Shown here one piece after another: positions 1-22,935 of a stretch of 31,406 bases of DNA. A model generated the notes under the pieces. That model saw only the letters and a list, made by a program, of their open reading frames with translations, made no database searches and was not told where the DNA came from. The DNA is taken from positions 1 through 31,406 of IMG/VR virus record IMGVR_UViG_3300035698_007375; one strand, given 5' to 3'. The translations under genes were made by a program, and so were the position numbers. This DNA comes from a virus. Numbering within the stretch: position 1 is the stretch's first letter; every line of letters starts with the position of its first letter.

Positions 1-555
1 AGGGATGTCTTTCATAGTCAGGTAAGGAGTAACCATCCTGAATAGACCCTTCAGAGCTTTTGCTCTACTCATGTCTGCTACTGATTTTTCATTCTTTGCA
101 TCTTCGAGTTCTTTCTTGGATGCGAGGTTACCAATAGAATCAATAACAACAATGACCTTTTCAGATCTGTCTAATTGCTCGAGCTGATTGACCAAATCAA
201 ATTTAAGTTCTTCAACATCAGCAATTGGTGTATGAATTACTCTCGATGGATCAATTCCCATACTTTCAAAGTAACTGCCTGGTGAGCCAAACTCGGAATC
301 ATAAAACAGTAGGGCTGCATCGGGATTTTCTTTGAGATAAAATGATGCCAAATAGAGAGCAAACATTGTCTTAAAGTGCTTAGAAGGTCCGGCAAAAACC
401 TTGAGACCTGAAGTCAGACCGCCTTTGATATTTCCAGACAATGCTACGTTGATCATAGGCACATCAGTAGAAACAGTCATTCGGTTCTTAAAAATCTTAG
501 ATTCGGATAGAACATCTGTATAAGAAGAACGTGAATTCTTCTTGAGTTTATTCAT
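1..555 (-). CDS. uvsX: UvsX RecA-like recombinase (N-terminal part, cut by window edge)
   Basis: Translating the minus strand from the ATG at 555 gives 185 codons running off the left edge. They read like T4 UvsX: an IALSG-type strand (INVALSGNIKGGLTSG), a Walker A loop of the UvsX type (AGPSKHFKT), LFYDSEFG, and the Walker B region with IDSIGNLASKKE and KSVADMSRAKALKGLFR. UvsX coats ssDNA and performs strand exchange in phage recombination and recombination-dependent replication, assisted by UvsY (encoded at 19402-19845). The start is supported by homology and by a 4-base ATGA overlap with the upstream deaminase gene, which suggests translational coupling. The C-terminal half is outside the window. 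Confidence 0.96.
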   Translation of the reverse strand, partial: MNKLKKNSRSSYTDVLSESKIFKNRMTVSTDVPMINVALSGNIKGGLTSGLKVFAGPSKHFKTMFALYLASFYLKENPDAALLFYDSEFGSPGSYFESMGIDPSRVIHTPIADVEELKFDLVNQLEQLDRSEKVIVVIDSIGNLASKKELEDAKNEKSVADMSRAKALKGLFRMVTPYLTMKDIP

Positions 556-1034
556 AATGGACATATAAGTCCTTCCTGAGTTTTGTAGACTCTAACACCT
601 GCCTCTTTAAGAAGACTTAGAGAATCACTTGTGGATTGTAGCCAGCGTGTTGGAATTTCATCGGGAAACCCGTATACAACATTCTTTACACCAGCTTGGA
701 TAATACCCAAACCACAGTTCATGCATGGCGGTAAACCAGAGACATAGATAGTAGAACCATGTAAAGAGATTCCTGAATAAGAGGCGTTGTAAATTACATT
801 CATTTCCGCTTGGACTATGTATTTATACTTTGTCTCACGTAGATAGAGTCTTTCTGTAGAGTCTTCTATATTTCTCGGAAAGCCGTTGTAGCCTGTGGAA
901 AGAATTCTACGATCAGAGTCAACAGCAACAGCTCCAATCTTGGTTGAAGGATCTTTAGACCAAGTTGAGACTAAATTTGCCATCTCAATAAATCTAAAAT
1001 CCCACTTCACTCCGTGGACTGCATTATTAATCAT
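552..1034 (-). CDS. cd: dCMP deaminase-family protein with an altered zinc ligand
   Basis: A 160-residue protein of the cytidine/deoxycytidylate deaminase fold. Visible signatures are an N-terminal DPSTKIGAVAVD strand, NGFPR, the catalytic segment QAEMN around residue 76 and the second zinc motif PPCMNC around residue 101, then IIQAGVKNVVYG. In phages the enzyme converts dCMP to dUMP for dTMP synthesis. The first zinc ligand, normally His (or Cys) in HAE, is Gln here (codon CAA), while the proton-shuttling Glu and the two PCxxC cysteines are kept. Activity is therefore uncertain. It overlaps uvsX by ATGA downstream and the 65-residue gene by 4 bases upstream, so it is part of one transcription unit. 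Confidence 0.88.
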   Translation of the reverse strand: MINNAVHGVKWDFRFIEMANLVSTWSKDPSTKIGAVAVDSDRRILSTGYNGFPRNIEDSTERLYLRETKYKYIVQAEMNVIYNASYSGISLHGSTIYVSGLPPCMNCGLGIIQAGVKNVVYGFPDEIPTRWLQSTSDSLSLLKEAGVRVYKTQEGLICPL

Positions 1035-1237: not shown

Positions 1238-1408
1238 TTAATGGAGAGCCGGCCGGAGAGCATCCCAGCCAGCCTGGCATGTGAAAATATTGCCTTCTTG
1301 GTCAATGTGGAATTCTTTTGAGCCCATATAGTGGAAATCATTATCGAAGACAAAGTAGCCGCCGGGTTCCACAACCGTAACAGTTCCGTCGAGAAAATCA
1401 TAAGTCAT
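1238..1408 (-). CDS. Hypothetical 56-residue protein
   Basis: A short ORF read directly from the minus strand. Its ATG (1408-1406) overlaps the stop of the upstream primase-like gene as TAATG and follows a good ribosome-binding sequence (AAAGGTG). The product begins MTYDFLDGTVTVVEPGGYFV and contains HIDQEGNIFTCQAGWDALRPALH; it looks like a small all-beta domain. No family is recognised. It fills what would otherwise be a 180-base gap, and its base composition matches that of coding neighbours. Confidence 0.6.
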   Translation of the reverse strand: MTYDFLDGTVTVVEPGGYFVFDNDFHYMGSKEFHIDQEGNIFTCQAGWDALRPALH

Positions 1409-2340
1409 TATATCACCTTTGTTCTGTAAACATATTCTAGAGCACGATCAGCCTCTGTTTCCAGAGGTCTTTTGGAATACCACCCGCCTGTGCTTCTGTC
1501 AAACTCTCGGACAAGAGAAGCAATTTCAATGTGAGTGATGGGATATTTATCAGCAAGAGCAGAGCCTGCTATGGCAACCATTATCTGGTAAAGTTTATAG
1601 TACCATCCGCTTTCGCTTATAGTCATATATTCTTTAGCCAATTGCTTGGGCCAGTAAGGACATTCTCGGTAGGTTAACCAGACCGGAGAAACATTAGTCA
1701 TTTGAGCTTTACGATGCTCGAGAATCTGTTTCTGCATTTCTGGGGAAAGTCTATCCATGAATGTAGAACCAGTTCGCTCGGTATACTCATACTTATTCAT
1801 AAGCTCCTGGGCATCAATAAAGGTTCCCTCGGTCTGCTTATAAAAGAAGTTACAAGCTCCAGCATAAGTGCCTGGAGTATAATACATTCTAGAATAGTCT
1901 TTGCATTGCTTATCAGCAAATTCACCCAAGCTGTTGAGAGCAAACCAGAAGTGTCTGATCTTGTCAGCAGGAATGTATTCTTTAAGAGGAAATACAACTC
2001 GAAACTTTGCTTTTTCCTTAGTAGAGCTGGCAGTATTATAGATCACATACTGCCAGCCGGGGTATTTTGCATCAATTAAGGCTGTTACACCATCTGGGCT
2101 ACATTTAACATCATCAACATCAAGAGCTGCCCAACCTGCCCAAGATATAACAGATTTGTTGGATCTGGTTTGATTAGGTTGATAGACCGCTGGAGAAATG
2201 AGTTTTGCATCTTTTTTACCCTTTAGTTTGATTTTTGATAATTTTTGCAGAAATTCAGTATAGCTTTCCCAAGAAGGAAATTGGTACTTCTTTCCCGTCT
2301 TGTTATCATAGATATTATTGAAAGCCGTAAGCTCAATCAT
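1408..2340 (-). CDS. Probable primase-polymerase-like (AEP/RepA-type) protein
   Basis: A 310-residue protein. The start at 2340 is preferred over longer readings because those overlap the upstream gene in another frame, and because TGA and ATG are separated by only 4 bases. Residues 66-170 look like the archaeo-eukaryotic primase fold of plasmid/phage replication proteins: ALDVDD (72-77) as the acidic metal motif, then YNTASSTKEKAKFRVVFPL (101-119), and DYSRMYYTPG (148-157) in the usual position of the 'SR-x-YxPG' motif. Residues 245-305 (GWYYKLYQIMVAIAG, EFDRSTGGWYSKRP) resemble the helical PriCT-type tail found after such domains. Expected role is priming or initiation of DNA synthesis. The assignment rests on motif pattern only; a non-catalytic replication protein is the alternative. 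Confidence 0.6.
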   Translation of the reverse strand: MIELTAFNNIYDNKTGKKYQFPSWESYTEFLQKLSKIKLKGKKDAKLISPAVYQPNQTRSNKSVISWAGWAALDVDDVKCSPDGVTALIDAKYPGWQYVIYNTASSTKEKAKFRVVFPLKEYIPADKIRHFWFALNSLGEFADKQCKDYSRMYYTPGTYAGACNFFYKQTEGTFIDAQELMNKYEYTERTGSTFMDRLSPEMQKQILEHRKAQMTNVSPVWLTYRECPYWPKQLAKEYMTISESGWYYKLYQIMVAIAGSALADKYPITHIEIASLVREFDRSTGGWYSKRPLETEADRALEYVYRTKVI

Positions 2341-2344
2341 GATA

Positions 2345-2698
2345 TCAGCCGAAGACACGGCCGTAAGCATTACATTCTGTATTAAATACTGCCATGATTT
2401 CTTCAGCAACACTTTCAGCTTCATCCATTTCAGCTTCAGTGATAAATGCCAAATTGTAGAAATCATCTGCAGAGATTTTGCACCGGGCCGTGCCGCCGAA
2501 TATTGTATCATAGCGGCCGTAGAGACCAAAGTCACCGGCGAATTCAACCTGGATAAAAGAGCCCATGGGAATTATAGGGCCGGTGCCGTCAGAATTATAG
2601 ATGTTCATGATATCAGCACCTGTGATAAGAAAGGTCTTTTCAGCATCATTTGATTTGATGGCTGTGATTTTATTAAAGTGTGCAAAAGCATTCAACAT
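2345..2698 (-). CDS. Hypothetical 117-residue protein
   Basis: The ORF can be opened at 2713, but the predicted promoter -10 at 2733-2728 would leave that ATG about 8 bases from the transcript start with no ribosome-binding site. The ATG at 2698 follows AAAGAGAA and is preferred (product begins MLNAFAHFNKITAIK). The protein has a beta-rich first half (FLITGADIMNIYNSDGTGP) and an acidic helical stretch EAEMDEAESVAEEIMAVF. No family is recognised. It is the first gene of a unit leading into the primase-like gene, separated from it by 4 bases. Confidence 0.6.
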   Translation of the reverse strand: MLNAFAHFNKITAIKSNDAEKTFLITGADIMNIYNSDGTGPIIPMGSFIQVEFAGDFGLYGRYDTIFGGTARCKISADDFYNLAFITEAEMDEAESVAEEIMAVFNTECNAYGRVFG

Positions 2699-3397: not shown

Positions 3398-3720
3398 TAA
3401 CTAATTGCCTTTATCATTTGTTTCAGTCTTTGCTTGCTAATTCTAACATCCATGAAAGTTCCATCAGCTTGTTTGATTTCAAGTCTTAAAGTATGATATT
3501 CTTTAGGGATTACCATAATGCTAAACTCAGAACCTGAGAGGTCGGAAGAACCATCTTCAGCAATAGAATTCGTAGTTGTTTTACTAGACCATTCCTTTTT
3601 ACACTTTCTTATGCCGGGGCCTGCAGACATAACTGCAGCTGGATAATAATCTCCAGCTGAACAGTCACACTCTTTTCTAATGCCACAAGCACAGCCTCCA
3701 CCTTGATCATATTGTGCCAT
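3397..3720 (-). CDS. Hypothetical 107-residue protein with Cys-rich N-terminus
   Basis: The first 20 residues carry a tight cysteine cluster (CACGIRKECDC), followed by a Ser/Thr-rich linker and a C-terminal beta/helix segment (FSIMVIPKEYHTLRLEIK, MDVRISKQRLKQMIKAIS). The cluster could bind a metal, but it matches no zinc-finger family I recognise. The gene follows the nucleotide-sugar dehydrogenase with a one-base stop/start overlap, so it is the last member of the sugar-modification operon. Confidence 0.6.
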   Translation of the reverse strand: MAQYDQGGGCACGIRKECDCSAGDYYPAAVMSAGPGIRKCKKEWSSKTTTNSIAEDGSSDLSGSEFSIMVIPKEYHTLRLEIKQADGTFMDVRISKQRLKQMIKAIS

Positions 3721-4556
3721 TATTTAAACATCACATTTTGTTCCATCTCTCGGGCATCGAGATCCAGATCTTTTCTATAATTTACATTGATTCTATGCAC
3801 TTCATCAAGTAGGGAGAAGTCACCTGTTGCTTTAATTGCTGACACATCCTTTGGAAAGCATGCCCCACCATACCCAGGCTTACCATCAAATCCAGGGACT
3901 CTGGTATGACTTGGACCAATTCTTGTGTCTGCAGAAATAGCATTCAGAACAGCATTAGGTTTAAAACCGTTCTTGGAAATTTCGGCTGCGAGTTGGTTAA
4001 AGAAGATAATCTTTGTGGCAAGAAAAGAATTAATGCCATACTTTACCCAGGCAGCTTCCATCATACTCATAGGATAAACTATACAGTCATTACAGATTGA
4101 ATATATTGTATACAGCTCAACAGTCCAATCAAAAAGATCCATACTGTTAGTACCAATGATATGAAAAGGCGGATTAACAAAATCATCCTTTGCAGCTCGT
4201 TCAGTTAGGAATTCAGGGTTATAGCAGAGATTGAGACTACTGAATTCATTTTCAAGTTTACCTAATACTTCAGGAGTAACTGTTGACTTAATGATAACCA
4301 GAGGAGAGGAGCCAGATCTAGTCCAATGTTCCCAAACTTGATCTAAAGCACTTCTGATATGCGTAGAATCTACCTCGCCATCTTCGGACATTGGTGTCGG
4401 AACACAGATAAAGACTGCCTCAGGAATCTCACAGTCTTTGTAATTTATCTCACCATATTTTGGATCAATAATAATGTTGTCTGAGTATTGGAAGGCATAA
4501 TCAACTGCCTGTCCAACAAACCCATGACCGATAATAGCAATAGTACCTTTTTTCAT
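3720..4556 (-). CDS. Nucleotide-sugar (UDP-glucose/GDP-mannose) dehydrogenase, short form
   Basis: A 278-residue member of the UDP-glucose 6-dehydrogenase family, which oxidises the C6 hydroxyl of a UDP- or GDP-sugar to a carboxylate with NAD. Seen: Rossmann nucleotide-binding start IAIIGHGFVGQ (7-17), VFICVPTPM (48-56), KSTVTPE (90-96), YNPEFLTERAAKDDF (112-126), the central dimer helix around 168-192 and the catalytic cysteine motif GYGGACFPKD with Cys233. Usual family members are about 390-450 residues; this one stops about 45 residues after the catalytic motif, so the C-terminal sugar-binding domain is missing. The start overlaps the SDR gene by ATGA. With the adjacent epimerase it suggests UDP-glucuronate/galacturonate chemistry, if the short form is active. 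Confidence 0.88.
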   Translation of the reverse strand: MKKGTIAIIGHGFVGQAVDYAFQYSDNIIIDPKYGEINYKDCEIPEAVFICVPTPMSEDGEVDSTHIRSALDQVWEHWTRSGSSPLVIIKSTVTPEVLGKLENEFSSLNLCYNPEFLTERAAKDDFVNPPFHIIGTNSMDLFDWTVELYTIYSICNDCIVYPMSMMEAAWVKYGINSFLATKIIFFNQLAAEISKNGFKPNAVLNAISADTRIGPSHTRVPGFDGKPGYGGACFPKDVSAIKATGDFSLLDEVHRINVNYRKDLDLDAREMEQNVMFK

Positions 4557-5518
4557 GTTTTAACCTCATAATAATATTTGTACCAATCAATGAAATGACC
4601 CACGCCTACATCAATTGGAGTTGTCGGTTTATAACCTAGTTTCTGTAGCTTCGAAGTATCAGACCAAGTCTCAATTGTATCCGCTGGGTGCTTCGGAACA
4701 AATTTCTTCTTGGCTTTAATTCCGAGGTGACCTTCAATACTTTTCACAAAGTCCATCAGCTGAACCTGTTTACCGTATCCGATATTGTAGATCTCTTTTG
4801 TGGTATCATTCTCAGGAGTTTCAACTGTATTCAGAACTAATTTAATACCTTGCACAATGTCAGCAACATAAGTAAAGTCACGAACCATATTTCCAAAGTT
4901 GAATAGCTCGATTTCTTCACCAGCAATGATTTTCTTAGTAAAGTCAAAGAGAGCCATGTCCGGACGGCCCCAAGGACCATAAACTGTAAAGAACCTAAGA
5001 CCTACGGTATGCTTAATAGCACTTGCCAGGAACTGAGACTCATTACAAGCCTTGGTATACCCATAAGGATTTAGCTGATGACCTGTTGGGTCTCTTTCAT
5101 GCCAAGGAAGGGAATTGCCAGCCATTACACAGGAGGTTGATGCAAAGATAACTTTATCAACTCCAACTTTATTACATGCTTCAATCAGATTATGGGTTCC
5201 TACTACATTATTTTCTACATATTCGCCTGGAGCATCCATAGAATGTCGGACACCAGCATATGCAGCAAGGTGGATAACCACATCAGGGTCAATAGATCTG
5301 ACATGATAATGAGTTCCAAAGACATCACGAAGATCTACTTTATGAATAACAATACCTTCATTCTCAAGAAGTCTCTTTTCTCTTTCTCGCTTCAAGGCTG
5401 GGTCATAGTAATCATTAAAATTATCCAAGCCTACCACACTATAGCCGGCATGGTGAAGCTGAGTAGCTAGATGTGAGCCGATGAAGCCAGCACATCCGGT
5501 TATTAATACTTTTGTCAT
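4553..5518 (-). CDS. NAD-dependent epimerase/dehydratase, UDP-glucuronate 4-epimerase-like
   Basis: A 321-residue extended SDR. The start at 5518 is chosen because the preceding stop overlaps it as ATGA; the in-frame ATG four codons upstream lies inside the previous gene. Seen: VLITGCAGFIGSHLA (4-18, NAD-binding), LDNFNDYYDP, HLAAYAGVRHS (a hallmark of UDP-glucuronate epimerases), STSC, catalytic Tyr152-x-x-x-Lys156 in NPYGYTK, then RFFTVYGPWGRPDMA. The reaction expected from the family is interconversion of UDP-GlcA and UDP-GalA in the cytoplasm. Its partner dehydrogenase, which would make the substrate, is next in the operon. dTDP- or other UDP-hexose specificity cannot be excluded. Confidence 0.9.
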   Translation of the reverse strand: MTKVLITGCAGFIGSHLATQLHHAGYSVVGLDNFNDYYDPALKREREKRLLENEGIVIHKVDLRDVFGTHYHVRSIDPDVVIHLAAYAGVRHSMDAPGEYVENNVVGTHNLIEACNKVGVDKVIFASTSCVMAGNSLPWHERDPTGHQLNPYGYTKACNESQFLASAIKHTVGLRFFTVYGPWGRPDMALFDFTKKIIAGEEIELFNFGNMVRDFTYVADIVQGIKLVLNTVETPENDTTKEIYNIGYGKQVQLMDFVKSIEGHLGIKAKKKFVPKHPADTIETWSDTSKLQKLGYKPTTPIDVGVGHFIDWYKYYYEVKT

Positions 5519-5796
5519 TGATCCATCCATCTTAATAGAGTGTTACGGAAGCGGTCTCTGGAGGGAAACCAAATTGACTTAGTTTTCTCACTAAGATTTT
5601 GCTCAATCAGTTTGGCAAACTCAAGATAATGCTCTTCTTTATCGAATCTGATTGTCAACACCTTAAATGGATGCTCGTCTTCTTGTATAAACTCAGGCAT
5701 TCCGTCCCAATCATAAGGTGTTTTCTGTTCTTCAATACCAGCGCGCATAAAAAGATTGCCTGATACATCATCAATATTATTCTTGTTCGTCGCCAT
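5515..5796 (-). CDS. Conserved phage small protein, 93 residues
   Basis: Acidic-to-neutral small protein with the run DWDGMPEFIQ, then FKVLTIRFDKEEHYLEFAKL and KTKSIWFPSRDRF. From memory, the 'WxGMPEFxQED ... KTxSIWFP' pattern occurs in phage proteins next to ParB-like or DNA-modification genes, but I cannot name a family with certainty. A ribosome-binding sequence AAGGAG precedes the ATG. It overlaps the glycosyltransferase gene upstream and the epimerase gene downstream, which points to a partner role in the same pathway. Confidence 0.7.
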   Translation of the reverse strand: MATNKNNIDDVSGNLFMRAGIEEQKTPYDWDGMPEFIQEDEHPFKVLTIRFDKEEHYLEFAKLIEQNLSEKTKSIWFPSRDRFRNTLLRWMDQ

Positions 5797-6661
5797 CCTC
5801 GTCGGCTCCTTCTTCTAATTCTATTTTCTTCATAACCATTCCATATTCATCAAGTTTCCTTGGAATATTTAGTCCTTTTTTCATGACAGGCTTCTGCAGA
5901 AAGACAGAATAATCAACATTGTGGTGCCACCGTCCCCATTTCTGAGTAATCTCTACCACATCAGGATGTTGAGCTTTTAATGACTCTGCAAATTCTCTTC
6001 GGTTATCAAATGCATCATCATTCTTAGCATAGACTTCCTCAGTATTTCCGCCCTTCATTTGCATTGTGGCAGATTTACCACACAGAAATGCATTGAATAG
6101 AAATGTGCAGTGATTATCTTTCAGGATACGAATACTCAGATCAGTATCCTCATTGTAGCGGCCGCGCCATCTGTGCGTAACTGAGTTATCAAGAAGAATA
6201 CAACTGTAAACTCGAGTATTAGTATAGTAGGGAGGTCGTTTAATTGTAGAAGGACAGAAGAAAAAGTAATTCATTCCAGACATTTTGACATTTTCATATC
6301 GGTCTGTAAAGTCCTCACAGCAACGGAATATAGATGGCGTGATTGCTCGAATTTTCATATTTCGGTTGAGGCGATAGAAGTGCCTGATGTTATCATCGAG
6401 AATCCAGTGCTTCTCATGACCTTCTGAAATAGAGTGTTCCCATACCCAATTCCGAGCAGGAATAGAACCTTGGCCGAGATTGGAGAAAGGTAGAGTTAGG
6501 ATCTTTTTGGGATCAATGACTGCAGCATAATCGTCATATTCTTGCGGCTCAATAACAATTCGATATGGACAGTTCATAGTCTCCAAGGCACGGGCTGTCA
6601 AACGAGACTCTGCTCTGCCCTTGGAGATAATATAGATTGGGTATTTTGGTAGCATTTTCAT
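5777..6661 (-). CDS. TAGT-like glycosyltransferase (GT-A fold)
   Basis: A 294-residue protein. It opens with PIYIISKGRAESRLTARAL (8-26), matching the 'YIPSKGR' start of TET/JBP-associated glycosyltransferases and related phage enzymes. WILDDNIRHFY (86-96) holds a DxD-like nucleotide-sugar/metal site, and RYNEDTDLSIRIL (168-180) is the second conserved acidic motif. The last 15 residues are very acidic. Known relatives are proposed to transfer sugars onto hydroxymethylated DNA bases. Here it sits beside genes for a nucleotide-sugar dehydrogenase and epimerase. A promoter directly precedes it, with the ATG only about 6 bases after the -10; MLPKYP at codon 3 is an alternative start. Acceptor (DNA base or other) is inference. 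Confidence 0.78.
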   Translation of the reverse strand: MKMLPKYPIYIISKGRAESRLTARALETMNCPYRIVIEPQEYDDYAAVIDPKKILTLPFSNLGQGSIPARNWVWEHSISEGHEKHWILDDNIRHFYRLNRNMKIRAITPSIFRCCEDFTDRYENVKMSGMNYFFFCPSTIKRPPYYTNTRVYSCILLDNSVTHRWRGRYNEDTDLSIRILKDNHCTFLFNAFLCGKSATMQMKGGNTEEVYAKNDDAFDNRREFAESLKAQHPDVVEITQKWGRWHHNVDYSVFLQKPVMKKGLNIPRKLDEYGMVMKKIELEEGADEDGDEQE

Positions 6662-6667
6662 CTAACC

Positions 6668-6696
6668 TTTATATCATGGATTAGTACCATTGTAAA
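6668..6696 (-). promoter_or_regulatory. Sigma70-like promoter (TTTACA-17-TATAAA) for the glycosyltransferase unit
   Basis: TTTACA at 6696-6691 and TATAAA at 6673-6668, 17-base spacer, in the 59-base gap between the methyltransferase and glycosyltransferase genes. The start codon lies 6 bases past the -10, so transcript from this site would be leaderless or nearly so. Confidence 0.65.
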
Positions 6697-6720
6697 CTTA
6701 TTTAGTGTGCTAAGATCAAT

Positions 6721-7371
6721 TTATTTTGACCATACGCCATGAAAGTCCCAACCGTTGGCAAAGCCTGGTACAGCAACAGCAGTGTAGCCTGCATCAGATA
6801 GATCAGACATAATCTTATTAGCTTTACCTTTCCAATCTTCTCCAACAAGAGGATGAAACTCAAGAATAATAGCTCGCAGATTAGGCTGAATGATATTGTA
6901 ACCGTATTCAGCTCCTTCTACATCAATCTTTGCAACTGTGCAACCCTTTACAGCATCCTCATATCGGATAGTCGGAACTGTAATGCTACCAGCTTTTGAT
7001 CCAGATTTAGCAATGCTGTTAGTGACACCAATTCCTTTTGAAAGATAAAGAGTAATCTCCTTGGAATCATCACCTACTACGGCTCTATTATGGACTTCCA
7101 TCGGGTCCATTCTATTCTTGCTTAATAACTCGAAAGTACGAGGGGTTGCTTCATAGCTTCGGACAGCCTTAACACCTTGGAGAGATGCATAACGGCTATA
7201 TTCTCCTACATAAGCTCCAATATCAGCCACAACATCATCGGGGTTGAGCTTAATCATTTTCGGGTGTTGCATAGGATTAGTGAAAGCCTTTCCTGACCTT
7301 GCGGCTAGGAAAGCATAATGTCCACCAGTTGTCTTTGATTTAATAAATGCATATTCAGTTTCTTCAATCAT
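6721..7371 (-). CDS. FkbM-type SAM-dependent methyltransferase
   Basis: A 216-residue Rossmann methyltransferase. SAM-binding motif I is VVADIGAYVGEYSRYA (47-62), the acidic motif II region is VRSYEATPRTFELL (70-83), and the FkbM signature is AKIDVEGAEYG (147-157) followed by ILEFHP. FkbM enzymes O-methylate sugars or other small groups. It starts with an ATGA overlap on the DNA polymerase stop, so it can be co-transcribed with gp43, and lies immediately before the glycosyltransferase unit. Probable role: methylating the sugar added by that system; the substrate is not shown by the sequence. Confidence 0.85.
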   Translation of the reverse strand: MIEETEYAFIKSKTTGGHYAFLAARSGKAFTNPMQHPKMIKLNPDDVVADIGAYVGEYSRYASLQGVKAVRSYEATPRTFELLSKNRMDPMEVHNRAVVGDDSKEITLYLSKGIGVTNSIAKSGSKAGSITVPTIRYEDAVKGCTVAKIDVEGAEYGYNIIQPNLRAIILEFHPLVGEDWKGKANKIMSDLSDAGYTAVAVPGFANGWDFHGVWSK

Positions 7372-9884
7372 GTGAAAAAGTCCTCTAGAGTATTTACTTC
7401 AGTTAGTGTCCATCCCACAGCCTGTAGAATAGGCTCAAGGGGTTTTAGAAATGTCTTTTGAAATTGTGTCTCATAGTCCACATATTGTTTTAAACCAAAC
7501 TCGTCAGGAAGGAAACCCTTAAATCCGATAATTTCATGTCTAAGAGGGTTAGGACTCTTCAGATATGTAAATTTGATCTTATCGCCATTCTTGATCCGTT
7601 CAACCTTCTTCGATAGACCCTTCTTTTCCATCCAATAGTTATGCAGGACAGCAGCCTTGCAGTGCCCAGGTGTACCTTTGATATAAGGCTTAGCAGGATT
7701 ATTGCTGACCCATTTATCTACCAGAGAAACTCCGCGGGGGCATGCAACTTCATGAGCAGGCATCGCATCAAATTCAGTCTGGAAGTCAGCAATGAACTTA
7801 CGAGTCTTTGTCTCAGACCCAGTAATGATAATCGGAAAGATATTTCGGAAAGCTTCGCGGACCTTTTCAGGTGTTGAAGACTTAATCGCCTCAATACCCT
7901 TCATAACCATCTTGGGCTTCTCGTACCGAACACCTTCTTTATCGAGAACATTTAGAATGTATCTCTTCTTGGCAGTCCAGATTACCTTATCAGCAATGAT
8001 TTCTCTATCCATTTCCATTCGAGGCTTGAACGAATTCATGTGGACAGCAAACTCATCATAAGTTTCCTTGAACATCGGCTTAAAATGTTCTTCGGCAATC
8101 TTGTTGAGAAACTCCACGGGATTCTTAGGATTGTATTTTTTAATAAGATCTGCGAAGTCTACATACAGAGAGTCTGTATCAATAGCAATGACATAATCTT
8201 TGGCAACCTTATTACCCATAAGCTTATTCATTTCAGCATTCATTCTTCGCTCAGACCAAAGAATTACAAGCTGTCCGGTCCATGTCACGGCCTCAGCAAC
8301 GCGGATATCAAAGTAACGGAAGAACCTATTACCAATAGCACCATATAGAGAGTTAAGTAGAATCTTAACCGCCATCTGTTTGTTATTGAACTGAATAATT
8401 AGATCAGCATCAGCTTTAGATTTGGTCTTTTCATATCGGACCTCAGCCTCAATCATCGAGGCCTTATCCTTTTTTCTCATAGCATATAGCTTTTCAACAA
8501 CATGAGGGATAATGCCTGACGAGTCGTTGGAGAAGGAGTGCCCGTTGGCTGATACCGAAACATTAAGCTCACGTGCCTTATCATCAGCAGGATTATCCAT
8601 ATAGTATTCTACACCAGAACCTGTCAGCCTCTCAGTATAATGGTGTAGCTTTTCAGGTGACATATTGTTCTGAACAATGATATTTGGATACAGAGATGCA
8701 AGGTCAAATGATACAACCCAGTCATGAATTCCGATCTTCGGAGCTTTAACATGGCCGCCTTCAAAATCTGATTTAAACTTAGGAACAGATAACGGAACCA
8801 CAATGTCTGCTTTGCATAACTCTCGATGGATAATGCTATCCCAAATTGCGGTAGTACCAAAGGTTGTGGTGAAATTCACACCTCCAATATAAGCAATTTC
8901 CATCACCAGTTCAATGAGTCTTTCCTGAAGATCCATAAGCTCAACAAGCTGAACATCAACAATATTATAGTCGATGTAGAGTTGATGGTTCTGTTCATAC
9001 AGATTGTCGAGGTTTCCATATTCTTCGTATGATAGTTTTTTCTTGCCTAGAACTACGTGAGCAATATGATCAAGTTTATAGCTTTCTTGGTTTCCATATT
9101 TAAATGCAAACTTCTGAAACAGATCGATGTAATCCAGAATCTGAACGCCCATGATATCATAAACTGTATTCTGTTTCTCATTGATGGTTACTTGATGCTC
9201 TGAAACCTGTTTCCAAGGAGATAGTTTCTTTACTGCCTCCTCACCAAAGAGTCTGCGGATTCTGTTGATAAGGTAGGGAATGTCAAAGAACCAGATATAC
9301 CAACCAGACACAATATCAGGAACATCAGATGCCCAATGATGACCCCAAGCCATGAGAAGGTCTTCCTCAGAATCAAACTTGTGATACTGAATGATTGCAT
9401 CTTCTACAATAGTTTTTGAGACATCATAGTCTTTAAGGCCCCAGACATGAAACACATTGCTCTTGCTTGATTTCATGGTGATAGCAGTAACTGGTGCCAT
9501 TGCTAAGGCTGGGTCAGGAAACCCATCATTGGACATAACTTCAATATCAATAAAGGCTGTGTTGACATAAGAGTAATCAAACTCGATAGACTCTGGATAT
9601 TCTTTTTGAATAAACTGGCAGACGTAATTTGTATTACCGTAGACTTTCATCTCATCTACGCCCTTATATCTCTCAAGATAATCTCGGGCGTCTGACATTT
9701 TTGTAAACTCAATTGGCGATACTGAAATACCATCAAGTGTTTTGTGAGTATTTTTGCCTGGTTTGTTTACGTATAGAGTTGGGGAAAATTTGATTCGACT
9801 TTGGATAGGATAACCATTTTCGTTATATCCACGGTATAGCATCGAATTGCCGTATTTATTTACGTTTGTGTAAAATCCACGCAA
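7368..9884 (-). CDS. 43: DNA polymerase, B family (gp43), TTG start
   Basis: Replicative polymerase with proofreading exonuclease, 838 residues (T4: 898). Exonuclease motifs: AFIDIEVM (110-117), GWYIWFFDIPYL (194-205) and YNIVDVQLVE (306-315). Polymerase motifs: A SFDLASLYPN (392-401), B KILLNSLYG (507-515), C IDTDSLYVD (568-576). The C-terminal LEDFF resembles the clamp-binding peptide of phage polymerases. The longest reading opens at a TTG at 9929 inside a terminator hairpin; I prefer the TTG at 9884, six bases after GAGGAG, because the product then begins RGFYTNVN, aligning with T4's MKEFYISI. In exonuclease motif II the usual Asn of 'GWN' is Tyr. Confidence 0.97.
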   Translation of the reverse strand: MRGFYTNVNKYGNSMLYRGYNENGYPIQSRIKFSPTLYVNKPGKNTHKTLDGISVSPIEFTKMSDARDYLERYKGVDEMKVYGNTNYVCQFIQKEYPESIEFDYSYVNTAFIDIEVMSNDGFPDPALAMAPVTAITMKSSKSNVFHVWGLKDYDVSKTIVEDAIIQYHKFDSEEDLLMAWGHHWASDVPDIVSGWYIWFFDIPYLINRIRRLFGEEAVKKLSPWKQVSEHQVTINEKQNTVYDIMGVQILDYIDLFQKFAFKYGNQESYKLDHIAHVVLGKKKLSYEEYGNLDNLYEQNHQLYIDYNIVDVQLVELMDLQERLIELVMEIAYIGGVNFTTTFGTTAIWDSIIHRELCKADIVVPLSVPKFKSDFEGGHVKAPKIGIHDWVVSFDLASLYPNIIVQNNMSPEKLHHYTERLTGSGVEYYMDNPADDKARELNVSVSANGHSFSNDSSGIIPHVVEKLYAMRKKDKASMIEAEVRYEKTKSKADADLIIQFNNKQMAVKILLNSLYGAIGNRFFRYFDIRVAEAVTWTGQLVILWSERRMNAEMNKLMGNKVAKDYVIAIDTDSLYVDFADLIKKYNPKNPVEFLNKIAEEHFKPMFKETYDEFAVHMNSFKPRMEMDREIIADKVIWTAKKRYILNVLDKEGVRYEKPKMVMKGIEAIKSSTPEKVREAFRNIFPIIITGSETKTRKFIADFQTEFDAMPAHEVACPRGVSLVDKWVSNNPAKPYIKGTPGHCKAAVLHNYWMEKKGLSKKVERIKNGDKIKFTYLKSPNPLRHEIIGFKGFLPDEFGLKQYVDYETQFQKTFLKPLEPILQAVGWTLTEVNTLEDFFT

Positions 9885-9907
9885 GTGTAGCTCCTCATAA
9901 TGTATGG

Positions 9908-9915
9908 TATTTATA
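9908..9915 (-). promoter_or_regulatory. Late promoter TATAAATA before gp43
   Basis: An exact T4-type late promoter element on the minus strand, 24 bases before the TTG start and directly after the terminator hairpin. It is intergenic, which sets it apart from chance copies inside coding sequence. It implies some gp55-dependent expression of the polymerase. Confidence 0.6.
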
Positions 9916-9936
9916 AAGAAGGGGCTCAAAAGCCCC
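9912..9936 (-). terminator. Rho-independent terminator after the regA unit
   Basis: On the minus strand GGGGCT-TTTG-AGCCCC (9936-9921) is a perfect 6-bp GC-rich stem with a 4-base loop, followed by TTCTTTATA. It lies after the stop of the 43-residue gene at 9942, so it ends the 44/62/regA transcript before gp43. The U-run is imperfect. Confidence 0.75.
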
Positions 9937-19880: not shown

Positions 19881-20363
19881 CTATATCTGAAACTCATTAA
19901 AGTGAAAAGATACTGCAACAGTTAAATAATCCGGTGTATCAGACTTTGTATCAAGTGTCAGTTCAGATAATGAAGAAGGCCAACAGTTCAGATATTTGAT
20001 GCTTCGAGAAATATTGTTAGTGCTTGTCAGAGGAGTCACAGTAATATCAATTTCAGAATATGTTTCTTCTCGAAGATTGCTACCTGCAATAGTATATTGG
20101 TCTGCCACAAGTCTTTTCATCCAGTCAAAGATCTCAAGATACACAGCCATCTTTTCATCAAGCAGGAAGTCAATAGTAAGCTCACCAAAGTCGAGTGCAT
20201 CACCTGGAAAGGCAACGCTGGCATTACCCGGGATGGGAACAGCTGAGACCGCTAAGCTTACAGAAGGATGCTGCACAGATGTGGCGTTGAACTCAAGAAG
20301 ACCATAGTTTTTCTTATCAAGAATGATCTTAAAATTGTTGGATTGTAATAAATTTGTAGACAT
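19881..20363 (-). CDS. Tail-tube (gp19)-fold virion protein
   Basis: A 160-residue protein resembling the gp19 tail-tube superfamily: NLLQSNNFKIILDK, VPIPGNASVAFPGDALDFGE, FLLDEKMAVYLEIFDWMKRL, a beta hairpin YSEIDITVTPL and LNCWPSSLSELTLD near the end. It is distinct from the tube protein at 27948-28478, so likely a baseplate or tail-end tube-like part. The ORF is open to 20432, but the ATG at 20363 is chosen because the late promoter at 20402-20395 lies inside the extra codons. The ribosome-binding sequence (GAGG, 13 bases away) is poor. Confidence 0.75.
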   Translation of the reverse strand: MSTNLLQSNNFKIILDKKNYGLLEFNATSVQHPSVSLAVSAVPIPGNASVAFPGDALDFGELTIDFLLDEKMAVYLEIFDWMKRLVADQYTIAGSNLREETYSEIDITVTPLTSTNNISRSIKYLNCWPSSLSELTLDTKSDTPDYLTVAVSFHFNEFQI

Positions 20364-20367
20364 GGGG

Positions 20368-20396
20368 TTTACATTGCCTCTTAGTTGGTGTATATA
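20368..20396 (+). promoter_or_regulatory. Sigma70-like promoter (TTTACA-17-TATATA) of the plus-strand cluster
   Basis: TTTACA at 20368-20373, a 17-base spacer and TATATA at 20391-20396, again preceded by GGGG. Expected start near 20403, giving a roughly 22-base leader before the ATG at 20425. Confidence 0.68.
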
Positions 20397-20402
20397 TTTA
20401 TA
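20395..20402 (-). promoter_or_regulatory. Late promoter TATAAATA for the tube-like gene
   Basis: Exact late element on the minus strand, 32 bases before the ATG at 20363. It overlaps the -10 of the divergent plus-strand promoter at 20368-20396. Confidence 0.75.
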
Positions 20403-20424
20403 GGTACATAGAAAGGTTTTTATT

Positions 20425-20757
20425 ATGAACACGCGCCAGACACGTCAAGTTGCACTCCTCGGATCTATTAAGCACTGGATTGAAAATGCAAATGCAGTAT
20501 CCGAGAGTGATATTTCTACTGATCCAGGGAAGTGCGATTGCTGCAAAATTTGGAACACAGAGAACGGAGGTGATTGCGAAGGCTGTCCGATTTATGATTT
20601 CACTGGTGAACAGTATTGTCGTGGAACCCCGTATATGGATGCTTCCATAATGGCTGAACACGCCCATGACACGCCGTCAACAATGGCCCAGTTTCACGCA
20701 GCTGCTCGCAAAGAGGTAAAATTTCTTATGAAAGTACTGATGAAGGAACTAAAATAG
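20425..20757 (+). CDS. Cys-rich small protein, first gene of plus-strand cluster
   Basis: A 110-residue protein with a likely zinc-binding cluster: CDCCKIW near residue 37, CEGCPIYDFTG near 51 and YCRGTPY near 63. This spacing is familiar from small uncharacterised phage proteins but has no assigned function. The N-terminus is basic (NTRQTRQVALLGSIKHW) and the C-terminus ends in a lysine-rich helix. GAAAGG precedes the ATG at about 8 bases. It lies directly behind the plus-strand promoter, so probably an early protein. Confidence 0.75.
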   Translation: MNTRQTRQVALLGSIKHWIENANAVSESDISTDPGKCDCCKIWNTENGGDCEGCPIYDFTGEQYCRGTPYMDASIMAEHAHDTPSTMAQFHAAARKEVKFLMKVLMKELK

Positions 20758-20831
20758 TGACAAAATGGGTAATGAAAGACTCCAAGAATGCACCTGTCAC
20801 AGCACCAAAGGAGCAAACATATGAGAGTTGA
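20757..20831 (+). CDS. Possible 24-residue GTG-start peptide
   Basis: GTG at 20757 overlaps the preceding stop as TAGTG, with AAGGAA eight bases upstream. The ORF ends at a TGA 11 bases inside the next gene. The peptide (MTKWVMKDSKNAPVTAPKEQ and four more) has no motif. It may only couple translation through the 63-base spacer. Confidence 0.35.
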   Translation: MTKWVMKDSKNAPVTAPKEQTYES

Positions 20832-21006
20832 GGTCACATATTATAGCAAGAAGCACAGCCAGATTGCACAAAGTCATATTTTAATAGACTCAACAGACTC
20901 AATCCTTGCTTCGCTTGGTAACAAGACCGAGGAATTTCTCCATGGATACTCAATCAAAGTGGCTGAAGGTAAGCTTCTTTCAATCTTTATGAAAAAGGTA
21001 CATTAA
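20821..21006 (+). CDS. Hypothetical 61-residue protein
   Basis: The ATG at 20821 is preferred to an in-frame one at 20788 because AAGGAG lies 7 bases before it. The product begins MRVEVTYYSKKHSQIAQSHI and reads as a small alpha/beta domain with a C-terminal strand (VAEGKLLSIFMKKVH). No family is recognised. It is followed after one base by the next gene. Confidence 0.6.
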   Translation: MRVEVTYYSKKHSQIAQSHILIDSTDSILASLGNKTEEFLHGYSIKVAEGKLLSIFMKKVH

Positions 21007-21007
21007 A

Positions 21008-21277
21008 ATGGCTTATGGTGATTACGACGGCCCTAATAAGGCTGATAAAGGTAAAGAAGGCGGAAGCTGCAACCGAGAGCGTTGCCAAGATTCTCCTGCT
21101 AATTACTACAATCACTGGTCACACTCGTGGTACTGTAAAAGCTGCAGCCTTGTCATCGGCCGGGATGCATTCAATTATAAGCATTGGATGAAGGATTATT
21201 TTCCAGAATGTCAGCACCCGATGTTTGAGGCACGCGGGGCGATGACAGCCCGAGGAGTACCGATCCATGACAAGTGA
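21008..21277 (+). CDS. Zinc-ribbon-like small protein (89 residues)
   Basis: Two cysteine pairs, CNRERC near residue 21 and CKSC near 43, spaced as in a zinc ribbon, with an extra Cys near residue 68 (PECQHP). The aromatic-rich middle (NYYNHWSHSWYC) is typical of phage zinc-ribbon proteins of unknown function. The C-terminal codons overlap the next gene by 11 bases. Nucleic-acid or protein binding is plausible but unproven. Confidence 0.7.
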   Translation: MAYGDYDGPNKADKGKEGGSCNRERCQDSPANYYNHWSHSWYCKSCSLVIGRDAFNYKHWMKDYFPECQHPMFEARGAMTARGVPIHDK

Positions 21278-21425
21278 AATTCCACAAGAGAAGCTTGATT
21301 ATTTGCTTACAGTTCAACCAAAACAGAAAGATGAGCCCATGGCTTGGGTTGCAAGTCTTATCCGTATGGGATATGAGGAAGGTGTTAAAGATACCATCGC
21401 AGATATGGAGGCGGACAAGGGATGA
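21267..21425 (+). CDS. Hypothetical 52-residue protein
   Basis: Read directly from sequence: the ATG at 21267 overlaps the zinc-ribbon gene by 11 bases, follows GAGGAG at 9 bases, and its TGA overlaps the next ATG as ATGA. The product (MTSEIPQEKLDYLLTVQPKQ and 32 more residues, with MAWVASLIRMGYEEGVKDTI) is acidic and helical. No family is recognised. Coupling at both ends makes it likely to be real. Confidence 0.6.
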   Translation: MTSEIPQEKLDYLLTVQPKQKDEPMAWVASLIRMGYEEGVKDTIADMEADKG

Positions 21426-21874
21426 AATGTGATCTGATTGAGGGGCTTGAAGAGACAGGCGTGGAAGCACGCAAACTTGGCTATGTTTCTATAGCAAATG
21501 AGGCCTTAGAAGCTGCAATTGAAATTAAACAGTTGCGTGATGCTTTAAAGCCATTTGCTGACTATGCAAACAGACCTGGATTTGATAAACTTTCAGATGA
21601 TTCTCCTCTAACTCAAGGCAGTAGTATGGCTGCTAAACAAGTAACAGCTCTAGACTTTAAAAGAGCCCGTGATGCTATAGGACAAAAAATGACACCTGAA
21701 GAAACTCTTGAGACAGTGGCACGGGCCTTATTTATAGCTGACTGTCCGCATAATATGTGCTCGGCTGACTGGGACAGTGGAGCTGTTCTAGGCCAGGGAA
21801 ATAGACATAGATATAAGGTTTATGATATGGCTGCAGCTGCAATCAAAGCTGTGCAGACACAAAATGACACCTGA
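21422..21874 (+). CDS. Hypothetical 150-residue protein
   Basis: Two parts can be seen. Residues 1-85 are helical with the EAAIEIKQLRDALKPFADYA pattern common in small phage proteins. Residues 89-150 begin MTPEETLETVARALF and contain CPHNMCSADWD and a helix MAAAAIKAVQ. The second part starts with the same bases (ATGACACCTGA) as the next gene, so it may have arisen by fusion or have an internal start. Function unknown. Confidence 0.6.
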   Translation: MKCDLIEGLEETGVEARKLGYVSIANEALEAAIEIKQLRDALKPFADYANRPGFDKLSDDSPLTQGSSMAAKQVTALDFKRARDAIGQKMTPEETLETVARALFIADCPHNMCSADWDSGAVLGQGNRHRYKVYDMAAAAIKAVQTQNDT

Positions 21875-22118
21875 GAAGTTAATAGAACGTGCCAAGACCT
21901 ACGTCGTGATTGATAATAATGGAGTAGCAGTGAATTTGGGTTATGAAATTGAACGCCTGAGATCTGCATTAATTGATATCGCAAACCCAATGGCTATGTT
22001 TAAAAGACAAGCTGATACAGCTGGAGCTAAGCTTACGAGCTTAGCATTCTTTATCGGAAACAACCCGGAATTTCTAAAGAAGCTAGCAAAAGAAGCGTTG
22101 GAACCACAAGATGGATGA
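21864..22118 (+). CDS. Hypothetical 84-residue protein
   Basis: The start MTPEKLIERAKTYVVI at 21864 overlaps the previous gene by 11 bases; a longer reading from 21822 would overlap more. Residues 20-45 (GYEIERLRSALIDIANPMAM) and the C-terminal helix PEFLKKLAKEALE are typical of the same small-helical family as its neighbour. No ribosome-binding site is obvious, suggesting coupled translation. Function unknown. Confidence 0.55.
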   Translation: MTPEKLIERAKTYVVIDNNGVAVNLGYEIERLRSALIDIANPMAMFKRQADTAGAKLTSLAFFIGNNPEFLKKLAKEALEPQDG

Positions 22119-22146
22119 TATTTTAAAGAAGCGGTGGAGGGATAAT

Positions 22147-22317
22147 ATGCATAGCGCAGAAGACAGAGCACAAATTGCGGTATCCCATAGGAGGCTAGTG
22201 GAACAAGACTGGCTTTCCACCACAATGACTGAAGCACAGATAAAATCAGCACAGTTTCGTATTGAAAGTCTCAAGAAAGGTATTCCAAAGCGCCCGCAGC
22301 GGGGGCGTCGGCGATGA
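22147..22317 (+). CDS. Hypothetical basic protein (56 residues), last of plus-strand cluster
   Basis: The ATG at 22147 follows GGAGGG at 5 bases, the best ribosome-binding site in the cluster. An in-frame ATG at 22111, overlapping the previous gene by 8 bases, would give 68 residues. The product is helical and ends in a strongly basic tail (KGIPKRPQRGRRR), suggesting nucleic-acid binding. The gene ends 6 bases before the convergent homing-endonuclease gene. Confidence 0.55.
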   Translation: MHSAEDRAQIAVSHRRLVEQDWLSTTMTEAQIKSAQFRIESLKKGIPKRPQRGRRR

Positions 22318-22323
22318 CAAAGC

Positions 22324-22935
22324 TTATGGCTGATCAAACCACAAAGGCCATTTAGAACTATTCACTCTATATGAAATAATGCTATGATACTTAAATCCAT
22401 ATGCTTTCTGACATTCTGTTATAGTGTCATAAGCAACACCATCAGCAAAGATAGCTCTTGATTTGGGGTTATCTTTGCCGCGCATTACATGTCTATAGAC
22501 TTTATAATTTTTGGGCTTACCTTTGTGTGCTTTTCTGGCACCTTCACCAATTGCTTTCTTATGCTCATCAGTAAGAGTTCTTCCATAGAATGGATTTCCT
22601 TCTCCCGTATGAGCTTTAGATCTTTCAGTTTTAGATTCTTCGGTTTGTGTCCAGCCTGATGTATGGATTCCTGTAGGTCTTCCGCCAGTTAAGCCACCTG
22701 GTGACTTGTTCCACCCAATATGTGATTCAGGTCTATATAAAGCTTCCATATTTGATATGATTTCTTCTGTATTCTCATGCAAGACTTGGAGTATACAATT
22801 CTCATCTATTTGATCATGGCGTTTAATATGTTCACCGAGTCTGTCTTCTACATTTCTTTCAGTGATACCAATATAGCCTTCGGTATTAGGATCTTTCATA
22901 TCTTTGGTACGGATCCAATATAATGAGTATGTCAT
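22324..22935 (-). CDS. Free-standing GIY-YIG homing endonuclease
   Basis: A 203-residue protein of the Seg-like family. The GIY-YIG core is YSLYWI (3-8) and EGYIGITE (18-25), with the Arg of RLGEHIKRH and the Glu of NMEALYRPESHIGWNKSPGG. Then come NUMOD3-type DNA-binding repeats (GEGNPFYGRTLTDEHKKAIG and RGKDNPKSRAI) and a C-terminal NUMOD1/HTH-like segment (GVAYDTITECQKAYGF). Such enzymes cut related genomes that lack them and spread by recombination. It sits beyond the gp23 terminator, at the junction with the plus-strand cluster; AGGTAAG precedes the ATG. Confidence 0.9.
   Translation of the reverse strand: MTYSLYWIRTKDMKDPNTEGYIGITERNVEDRLGEHIKRHDQIDENCILQVLHENTEEIISNMEALYRPESHIGWNKSPGGLTGGRPTGIHTSGWTQTEESKTERSKAHTGEGNPFYGRTLTDEHKKAIGEGARKAHKGKPKNYKVYRHVMRGKDNPKSRAIFADGVAYDTITECQKAYGFKYHSIISYRVNSSKWPLWFDQP

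What the first reader, a model, noticed from the sequence alone, without database searches (positions are those of the whole stretch)
3720..7371. Five-gene sugar-modification island joined to the DNA polymerase operon
Seen: an FkbM methyltransferase overlapping gp43, a TAGT-like glycosyltransferase, a 93-residue partner, a UDP-glucuronate-epimerase-like SDR and a nucleotide-sugar dehydrogenase, mostly with stop/start overlaps. Known: TAGT-type enzymes are predicted to glycosylate oxidised DNA bases, T4-like phages protect DNA with glucosylated bases, and UGD plus GAE make uronic-acid nucleotides. Inference: the phage may decorate its DNA with a uronic-acid-type, possibly methylated, sugar. That would be a distinct anti-restriction chemistry. 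The alternative is modification of a host glycan or virion protein.
Basis: partly seen in the sequence, partly recalled or inferred. Interest (0 to 1): 0.68.

Follow-up and report, generated by a model that had tools for sequence, protein, structure and literature searches.

The report
Phage DNA-sugar island with uronate genes
A T4-like phage fragment carries, in the same slot between DNA polymerase and recombinase genes where coliphages T4 and T6 keep their DNA-glucosylation genes, a set of genes that should make a glucuronic/galacturonic-acid sugar and attach it, probably to the phage's own DNA, as a shield against bacterial defences.

Summary
The five genes are real (FkbM methyltransferase, TAGT glycosyltransferase, 93-aa partner, UDP-GlcA-4-epimerase-type SDR, mini-UGD) and tightly packed. 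They lie in the gp43-uvsX interval, where T6 keeps gp42 and its TAGT gene ggt. Among relatives this interval is a swap-in DNA-modification locus: 38 of 39 lineages hold at least one modification-type gene. One recurrent layout is gp42 (dCMP hydroxymethylase) - dCMP deaminase ... DNA alpha-glucosyltransferase - epimerase - UGD - uvsX, so UGD and epimerase sit beside a T4-type DNA glycosyltransferase in sister phages. All five TAGT-bearing intervals carry UGD and epimerase. The 93-aa partner is the C-terminal module of ParB_N proteins and is fused to TAGT elsewhere. Best reading: the phage's DNA-decoration locus, supplying UDP-glucuronate/galacturonate to a DNA-directed TAGT, with methylation by FkbM. 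Donor use, acceptor and methylation site are inferred. Two awkward facts: UGD lacks its C-terminal UDP-binding domain, and no gp42 or TET was found in the window or in a 177-kb relative with the same island, so the acceptor hydroxyl is unexplained. SP-15 (phosphoglucuronate DNA) is a precedent. New variant of a known kind.

The parts
6721..7371 (-). FkbM-family methyltransferase (216 aa), stop/start overlap with gp43; predicted O-methylation of the transferred sugar
   Evidence: PF05050 1.9e-6 and NCBIfam fkbM_fam 5.7e-13; a 43% identical FkbM gene lies directly upstream of a p93-TAGT fusion in unrelated contig L021
5777..6661 (-). TAGT glycosyltransferase (294 aa), GT-A fold, DDN and NEDTD motifs intact
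   Evidence: PF20691 3.2e-44; T6 ggt passes the same family cut-off; invariant D89 D90, R166, E171 D172 across 38 homologues; AlphaFold pTM 0.86 and GT-A matches in the PDB
5515..5796 (-). p93, small partner of TAGT; same module as the C-terminal part of ParB_N-domain proteins
   Evidence: domain found beside or fused to most TAGTs; fused N-terminally in Aeromonas phages and in L025, L031, L021; ParB_N + p93 in L046, L038, L050 (the L050 ParB_N hit is just under cut-off)
4553..5530 (-). SDR of the UDP-glucuronate 4-epimerase type (325 aa)
   Evidence: best PDB matches 5u4q 1e-77, 6zl6 3e-46, MoeE5 6e-39 against UDP-GlcA decarboxylases 3e-21; YGPWGRPDM motif with the Arg185 equivalent (PMC12338863)
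3720..4556 (-). mini UDP-glucose dehydrogenase-like protein (278 aa), Rossmann and central domains, catalytic Cys, no C-terminal domain
   Evidence: PF03721, PF00984 but no C-terminal domain family; NPEFLTE, KYxxNSFLA, GGACFPKD motifs largely kept in six phage homologues, catalytic Cys in all six
7368..9929 (-). gp43 DNA polymerase, left border of the modification interval
   Evidence: phrog_262 2.9e-276
1408..2547 (-). primase-type protein inside the interval (constant in relatives)
   Evidence: phrog_9765 2.9e-44; present in relatives' intervals
552..1034 (-). dCMP deaminase; in gp42-bearing relatives it usually lies directly after gp42
   Evidence: PF00383 5.5e-17, phrog_174, neighbour table
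1..564 (-). uvsX (part, runs off the contig), right border of the interval
   Evidence: 72% identical to C48C1 UvsX

Best explanation
The island is the phage's DNA-hypermodification locus, occupying the gp43-uvsX slot used for that purpose in T-even phages. (1) UGD oxidises UDP-glucose to UDP-glucuronate (inferred from homology and an intact active site). (2) The SDR interconverts UDP-glucuronate and UDP-galacturonate (inferred; diagnostic arginine present). (3) TAGT, guided by the ParB-associated p93 partner, transfers the uronosyl group to a hydroxyl on phage DNA: either a 5-hydroxy(methyl) pyrimidine or a first sugar already on it, as T6 TAGT does (inferred). (4) FkbM O-methylates the sugar (inferred, weakest step). 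The result would be a bulky, possibly charged or methyl-capped, sugar on DNA that blocks restriction enzymes and Cas nucleases. Shown by computation: gene identities, motifs, position, recurrence of the set, and the same UGD+epimerase pair next to gp42 and DNA alpha-GT in relatives. Not shown: enzymatic activities, the acceptor base, and the modified nucleoside itself.
For: Slot: T6 has gp43-imm-gp42-ggt(TAGT)-uvsX; T6 ggt is PF20691 and adds a second glucose to alpha-glucosyl-hmC (PMC13216743). Island context: 38 of 39 distinct pol-uvsX intervals hold at least one sugar, base-modifying or glycosyltransferase-type gene; among the 17 lineages fetched by polymerase alone, UGD is in 10 and a base enzyme (gp42 or TS2) in 11. 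Sister layout: gp42 - dCMPdeam ... AGT - SDR - UGD - C5-MTase-like gene - uvsX in L155, L158, L162, L172, L174, L177, L205, L221; gp42 matches T4 dCMP hydroxymethylase at 7e-69 against 2e-10 for E. coli TS and keeps the Asp179 motif; AGT passes PF11440 and aligns to T6 alpha-GT at 7e-49; that SDR is again the epimerase type. TAGT coupling: all 5 TAGT-bearing intervals have UGD+GAE; in the two TAGT clades that hold the window and the gp46-gp45 islands, all 15 lineages carry a sugar-nucleotide SDR (GAE, UXS or a third type) and/or UGD, swapped between types. DNA targeting: p93 is a ParB_N-associated module and is fused to TAGT.
Against: No gp42/TS (PF00303) in the window. Neither gp42/TS nor TET/JBP in the 177-kb relative G071, which has the same island, nor in 42 TAGT-bearing viral records (fragments). 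The UGD family lacks the C-terminal UDP-binding domain. Many TAGT+p93 loci outside these two clades have no sugar genes, so TAGT does not need them. FkbM is absent from nearly all relatives. No biochemical data.
Confidence: 0.62

Rival explanations
1. The island does decorate phage DNA, but the attached sugar is not a uronic acid: the mini-UGD and SDR have drifted to another nucleotide sugar, or TAGT uses host UDP-glucose and the UGD/SDR pair serves another glycosyltransferase.
For: UGD lacks its UDP-binding domain. UGD occurs in many intervals without TAGT or epimerase. Some TAGT loci carry UDP-xylose-synthase-type SDRs, so pentoses are used in relatives. T6 TAGT uses glucose (PMC13216743).
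Against: Active-site residues of UGD are conserved in six phage homologues. The window SDR has the epimerase arginine and GAE as nearest structures. TAGT intervals always have both genes.
Confidence: 0.18
2. The genes modify a virion protein or a host surface glycan (for example to block superinfection or alter tail or capsid), not DNA.
For: FkbM, UGD and SDR enzymes are common in surface-glycan pathways (general knowledge). Foldseek's top matches for TAGT are protein O-glycosyltransferases, at low TM scores. No base hydroxylase was found with TAGT islands.
Against: The genes sit in the replication operon, in the homologous slot of T6 gp42-ggt, and are exchanged there with gp42 + DNA alpha-GT layouts. 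TAGT's partner is a ParB-associated module. The tail-linked glycosyltransferase cluster of relative G071 is elsewhere in its genome.
Confidence: 0.13
3. Mini-UGD does not act on UDP-glucose at all but oxidises the C6 of a sugar already attached to DNA; TAGT and SDR act before it.
For: The C-terminal UDP-binding domain is absent in all six homologues aligned (about 268-334 aa across relatives), yet the active site is conserved.
Against: The adjacent epimerase type works on UDP-GlcA; no precedent known to me.
Confidence: 0.05

Closest known systems
T6/T2 gp42 + alpha-GT + TAGT (ggt) cytosine gentiobiosylation
   Same: TAGT family enzyme; same gp43-uvsX slot
   Different: T6 uses host UDP-glucose and phage gp42; the window encodes its own UDP-sugar pathway, a separate p93 partner and FkbM, and shows no gp42 or alpha-GT in the fragment
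Bacillus phage SP-15 hypermodified DNA (phosphoglucuronolactone + glucose on dihydroxypentyluracil)
   Same: phage-encoded UGD (27% identical) and a glucuronate moiety on DNA (PMC5977210)
   Different: glucuronate is attached as a 1-phosphate on a thymine analogue; no TAGT and no 4-epimerase reported there
RB69/Mosigvirus and Shewanella phage Thanatos cytosine pentosylation
   Same: T4-like phages that make their own unusual nucleotide sugar for DNA (PMC6024577, PMC12838424, PMC13390438)
   Different: arabinose or deoxypentose, kinase/pyrophosphorylase-type genes, TS-family 5-hydroxy-dCMP synthase; the passages I read do not report the UGD+GAE route
Phage C48C1 (OQ984149), nearest complete genome by polymerase
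   Same: pol-...-primase-SDR(51%)-UGD(42%)-uvsX
   Different: no TAGT; has TET/JBP followed by an unknown protein and a UDP-galactopyranose-mutase-like gene elsewhere

Membership tests
TAGT glycosyltransferase (PF20691) | passes family profile cut-off over the full domain | tested here: met
   151.8 bits vs 27.5, profile 1-205/205
TAGT glycosyltransferase (PF20691) | GT-A fold with conserved acidic motifs | tested here: met
   pTM 0.86 model; GT-A matches incl. SpsA 1h7l; invariant DD, WR, ED
TAGT glycosyltransferase (PF20691) | genomic association with TET/JBP oxygenase | tested here: inconclusive
   no TET found with TAGT loci in fragments or in G071; the window's own genome is incomplete
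TAGT glycosyltransferase (PF20691) | transfers a sugar to modified bases in DNA | not testable with these tools
   needs enzyme assay or nucleoside MS
UDP-glucuronate 4-epimerase (GAE) | closest to GAE structures rather than decarboxylases | tested here: met
   5u4q 1e-77, 6zl6 3e-46 vs UXS 3e-21; contrast L011 SDR, UXS 1e-109
UDP-glucuronate 4-epimerase (GAE) | Arg185-equivalent that holds the product carboxylate; YxxxK | tested here: met
   YGPWGRPDM and YGYTK in sequence; role of Arg185 from PMC12338863
UDP-glucose 6-dehydrogenase | N-terminal NAD domain, central domain and catalytic Cys/Lys | tested here: met
UDP-glucose 6-dehydrogenase | C-terminal UDP-binding domain | tested here: not met
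   protein ends after the central domain, as in C48C1; so named UGD-like, not filed as a typical UGD
FkbM methyltransferase | passes PF05050 cut-off | tested here: met
   28.5 vs 22.7 bits
T-even hmC glycosylation system | modification genes between gp43 and uvsX | tested here: met
   window order pol ... uvsX, T6 order
T-even hmC glycosylation system | gp42 dCMP hydroxymethylase | tested here: inconclusive
   none in the 31-kb window nor in the 177-kb relative G071; present in other sister phages
T-even hmC glycosylation system | alpha- or beta-glucosyltransferase for the first sugar | tested here: inconclusive
   no AGT homologue in the window or G071; AGT present in sister layouts

The most novel reading that the evidence does not exclude
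TAGT-type phages of this group put UDP-glucuronate-derived (uronic) sugars on DNA through an acceptor that is made by neither gp42/thymidylate-synthase-type hydroxymethylases nor TET oxygenases, i.e. by an unrecognised base-activation route or by direct glycosylation of a canonical base.
Probability: 0.25. Interest if true: 0.9.

Novelty: new variant of a known kind. Interest (0 to 1): 0.7.

Why it matters
It points to a large, little-described set of T4-like phages (548 mini-UGD loci confirmed in one capped scan) in which the classic T-even DNA-modification slot has become a cassette site exchanging base enzymes (gp42, a second TS-like type, TET), glycosyltransferases (AGT, TAGT, unknown ones) and sugar-supply modules (UGD+4-epimerase, UXS). 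If uronic acids are the cargo, these genomes would carry extra negative charge, or a methylated or amidated cap, on DNA, which would affect restriction, Cas nucleases and DNA glycosylase defences. It also gives a concrete donor hypothesis for some of the 'solitary TAGTs' that PMC13216743 lists as of unknown function.

Tried and rejected
UDP-xylose synthase reading of the window SDR: rejected by structure ranking and the RPDM arginine motif. Island as a private oddity of one contig: rejected, it recurs. ThyX as a special hydroxymethylase of TAGT phages: no support, ThyX occurs equally in gp42-bearing relatives. TET or gp42 hidden by profile insensitivity in G071: local HMMs built from the relatives' own gp42/TS2 and TET proteins found nothing. 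FkbM relatives in the phage collection: none at 1e-5. Profile-profile of TAGT with T6 ggt was weak (hhalign probability 8%); the family link rests on Pfam cut-offs and PMC13216743. Paper search for FkbM + TET + phage: nothing held; Iyer et al. 2013 not in the library. Mutual exclusion of TAGT and base enzymes in intervals (0/5 vs 15/34): not significant (hypergeometric about 0.07, hand calculation).
Full report
What is in the sequence. The window is a 31,406-base IMG/VR virus record with no other contig. It is T4-like: gp23, gp20, gp21, gp18, terminase, gp44-47, UvsW and UvsY were found. On the minus strand, gp43 is followed by FkbM (6721-7371), TAGT (5777-6661), a 93-aa ORF (5515-5796), an SDR (4553-5530) and a UGD-like protein (3720-4556). 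Then come three small ORFs, a primase-type gene, a dCMP deaminase and the end of uvsX. The junctions are almost all overlaps.

What the enzymes are. TAGT scores 151.8 bits against PF20691 and its model has a GT-A fold. The GT signatures (DDN, WR, NEDTD) are invariant or nearly so in 38 homologues. The SDR is nearest to UDP-glucuronate 4-epimerases (5u4q, 6zl6, MoeE5; that 5u4q is itself such an epimerase is my recollection, its deposited name is different). It keeps the arginine that, in the Bacillus cereus enzyme, holds the product carboxylate (PMC12338863). SDRs next to other TAGTs (L001, L011, L016, L035) instead carry the decarboxylase motif, and L011's matches UDP-glucuronate decarboxylase at 1e-109. 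The UGD keeps NPEFLTE, KYGINSFLA and GGACFPKD but lacks the C-terminal UDP-binding domain; five aligned relatives are equally short. I therefore call it UGD-like. FkbM passes PF05050; its only close relative in the loci fetched is the gene immediately upstream of the p93-TAGT fusion in L021.

The 93-aa partner. Its domain (GMPEF ... FAKL ... KTKSIWFP) occurs beside or inside most TAGT genes. It is fused to the N-terminus of TAGT in Aeromonas phages and in L021, L025 and L031. In longer partners it follows a ParB_N domain (L038, L046; L050 just below cut-off). So it is a ParB-associated module that travels with TAGT. In L021 the fusion also has a weak uracil-DNA-glycosylase-like tail (E=0.009, below cut-off).

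The position. In T6 the order is gp43-imm-gp42-ggt-uvsX, and ggt is itself PF20691. It adds the second glucose to alpha-glucosyl-hmC (PMC13216743). The window's island sits in that same interval.

The interval in relatives. I fetched 80 polymerase relatives and 80 UGD relatives from viral contigs and read the pol-uvsX interval wherever both ends were present: 66 loci, 39 lineages at 95% polymerase identity. 38 of 39 hold at least one modification-type gene. Recurrent layouts: (A) pol-..-TAGT-p93-primase-..-(second GT)-GAE-UGD-uvsX (L183, L184, L192, L196, L202, L212, and with dCMP deaminase L080, L084), plus the window. (B) gp42-dCMP deaminase-..-AGT-GAE-UGD-C5-MTase-like gene-uvsX (L155, L158, L162, L172, L174, L177, L205, L221; most of these contigs do not reach pol). 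(C) gp42-dCMP deaminase-unknown protein-UGM-short SDR-C5 methyltransferase-uvsX (L114, L125, L129, L131, L140, L142). (D) a second TS-like enzyme-asparagine-synthase-like enzyme-(dCMP deaminase)-UGD-uvsX (L071, L073, L074, L075, L159, L165, L171), which could amidate a uronate. (E) SDR-UGD only (C48C1, L081, L086, L089, L093, L094, L104). One interval holds a TET/JBP gene (L255). The gp42 of these intervals is a true dCMP hydroxymethylase type: T4 enzyme at 7e-69 against 2e-10 for E. coli TS, with the Asp179 motif in every gp42-type row that covers it. AGT is PF11440 and 29% identical to T6 alpha-GT.

Why this bears on the window. The UGD+GAE pair is found in one layout next to gp42 and a known type of DNA glycosyltransferase, and in another next to TAGT, in the same slot of related phages. 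All five TAGT intervals carry UGD+GAE; GAE is in 10 of 39 lineages overall, hypergeometric about 4e-4 by hand, though these lineages are related. A second kind of island, gp46-p93-TAGT-SDR-UGD-gp45 (L022, L166, L169, L215, with other SDRs in L163, L191), has the same set in another place. In the TAGT tree the window falls in a supported clade of six (100/97) in which every member neighbours a GAE or a UXS. The nine members of the gp46-gp45 clade all neighbour a sugar SDR and/or UGD too, with type changes inside both clades. The simplest account is that TAGT stays and the sugar-supply module is exchanged.

Limits. The loci were fetched by TAGT, polymerase or UGD similarity, so frequencies are not population estimates; only the 17 polymerase-fetched lineages are free of UGD bias (UGD 10 of 17, base enzyme 11 of 17). 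ORFs in contigs come from a simple greedy caller of my own. The window is incomplete, so absence of gp42/TET there means little. Absence in G071 (177,535 bases, nearly all T4 core genes found, gp7 not matched, two TAGTs, ThyX) means more. No TS-family or TET hit was found in 42 TAGT-bearing viral records. Where the acceptor hydroxyl comes from in TAGT phages is therefore open; if TAGT adds a second sugar, as in T6, the first glycosyltransferase of the window phage is also missing from the fragment.

Mechanism and verdict. Most likely (0.62) the island makes UDP-glucuronate/galacturonate and TAGT+p93 places it on phage DNA, with FkbM capping it. Rivals: same locus, other sugar (0.18); virion or host glycan (0.13); oxidation of a DNA-linked sugar by mini-UGD (0.05). 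Precedents keep it from being categorically new: T6 TAGT (PMC13216743), SP-15 phosphoglucuronate (PMC5977210), and RB69/Thanatos pentoses (PMC6024577, PMC12838424, PMC13390438). I found no held paper describing UGD+GAE with DNA glycosyltransferases in T4-like phages, but most subscription papers are not in the library.

Noticed in passing
L165:996-3036 (also L071, L073, L074, L075, L159, L171): A second thymidylate-synthase-like family (RSCDVVRHLHNDLYFA) directly followed by an asparagine-synthase/GATase-like enzyme, close to UGD: looks like a route to uronamide-type DNA sugars.
   Followed up: partly
OQ984149 49583-53030 (L062:84-3531): Phage C48C1 has TET/JBP followed by an unknown 344-aa protein and a UDP-galactopyranose-mutase-like gene; the latter two also follow gp42 and dCMP deaminase in the pol-uvsX interval of other phages (L113, L116, L125 and others).
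   Followed up: partly
L248, L251, L252, L254: TET/JBP gene inserted right after gp46 in T4-like contigs up to 154 kb; another (L255) between pol and uvsX.
   Followed up: no
L021:8654-11022: FkbM gene overlapping a p93-TAGT fusion that ends in a uracil-DNA-glycosylase-like tail (weak hit).
   Followed up: partly
window 22324-22935: NUMOD3/I-TevI-type homing endonuclease next to gp23, beside a short run of plus-strand ORFs (20788-22317).
   Followed up: no
window 19881-20432 and 27948-28478: Two tail-tube gp19-like paralogues, one next to UvsY and one in the usual sheath/portal order (the first hit is below cut-off); the same arrangement is in C48C1.
   Followed up: no
L001:14015-14947, L022, L024-L027, L031: A second GT-A-like glycosyltransferase-type family (c3, DSDIGF motif) accompanies TAGT in gp46-gp45 islands; not found in the window.
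   Followed up: partly
L092:16202-19077, L078:9276-12073: Gene trio (318-aa phrog_13881, PLP-dependent-enzyme-like, 331-373-aa unknown) between gp42 and UGD/SDR: probably another modification module.
   Followed up: no
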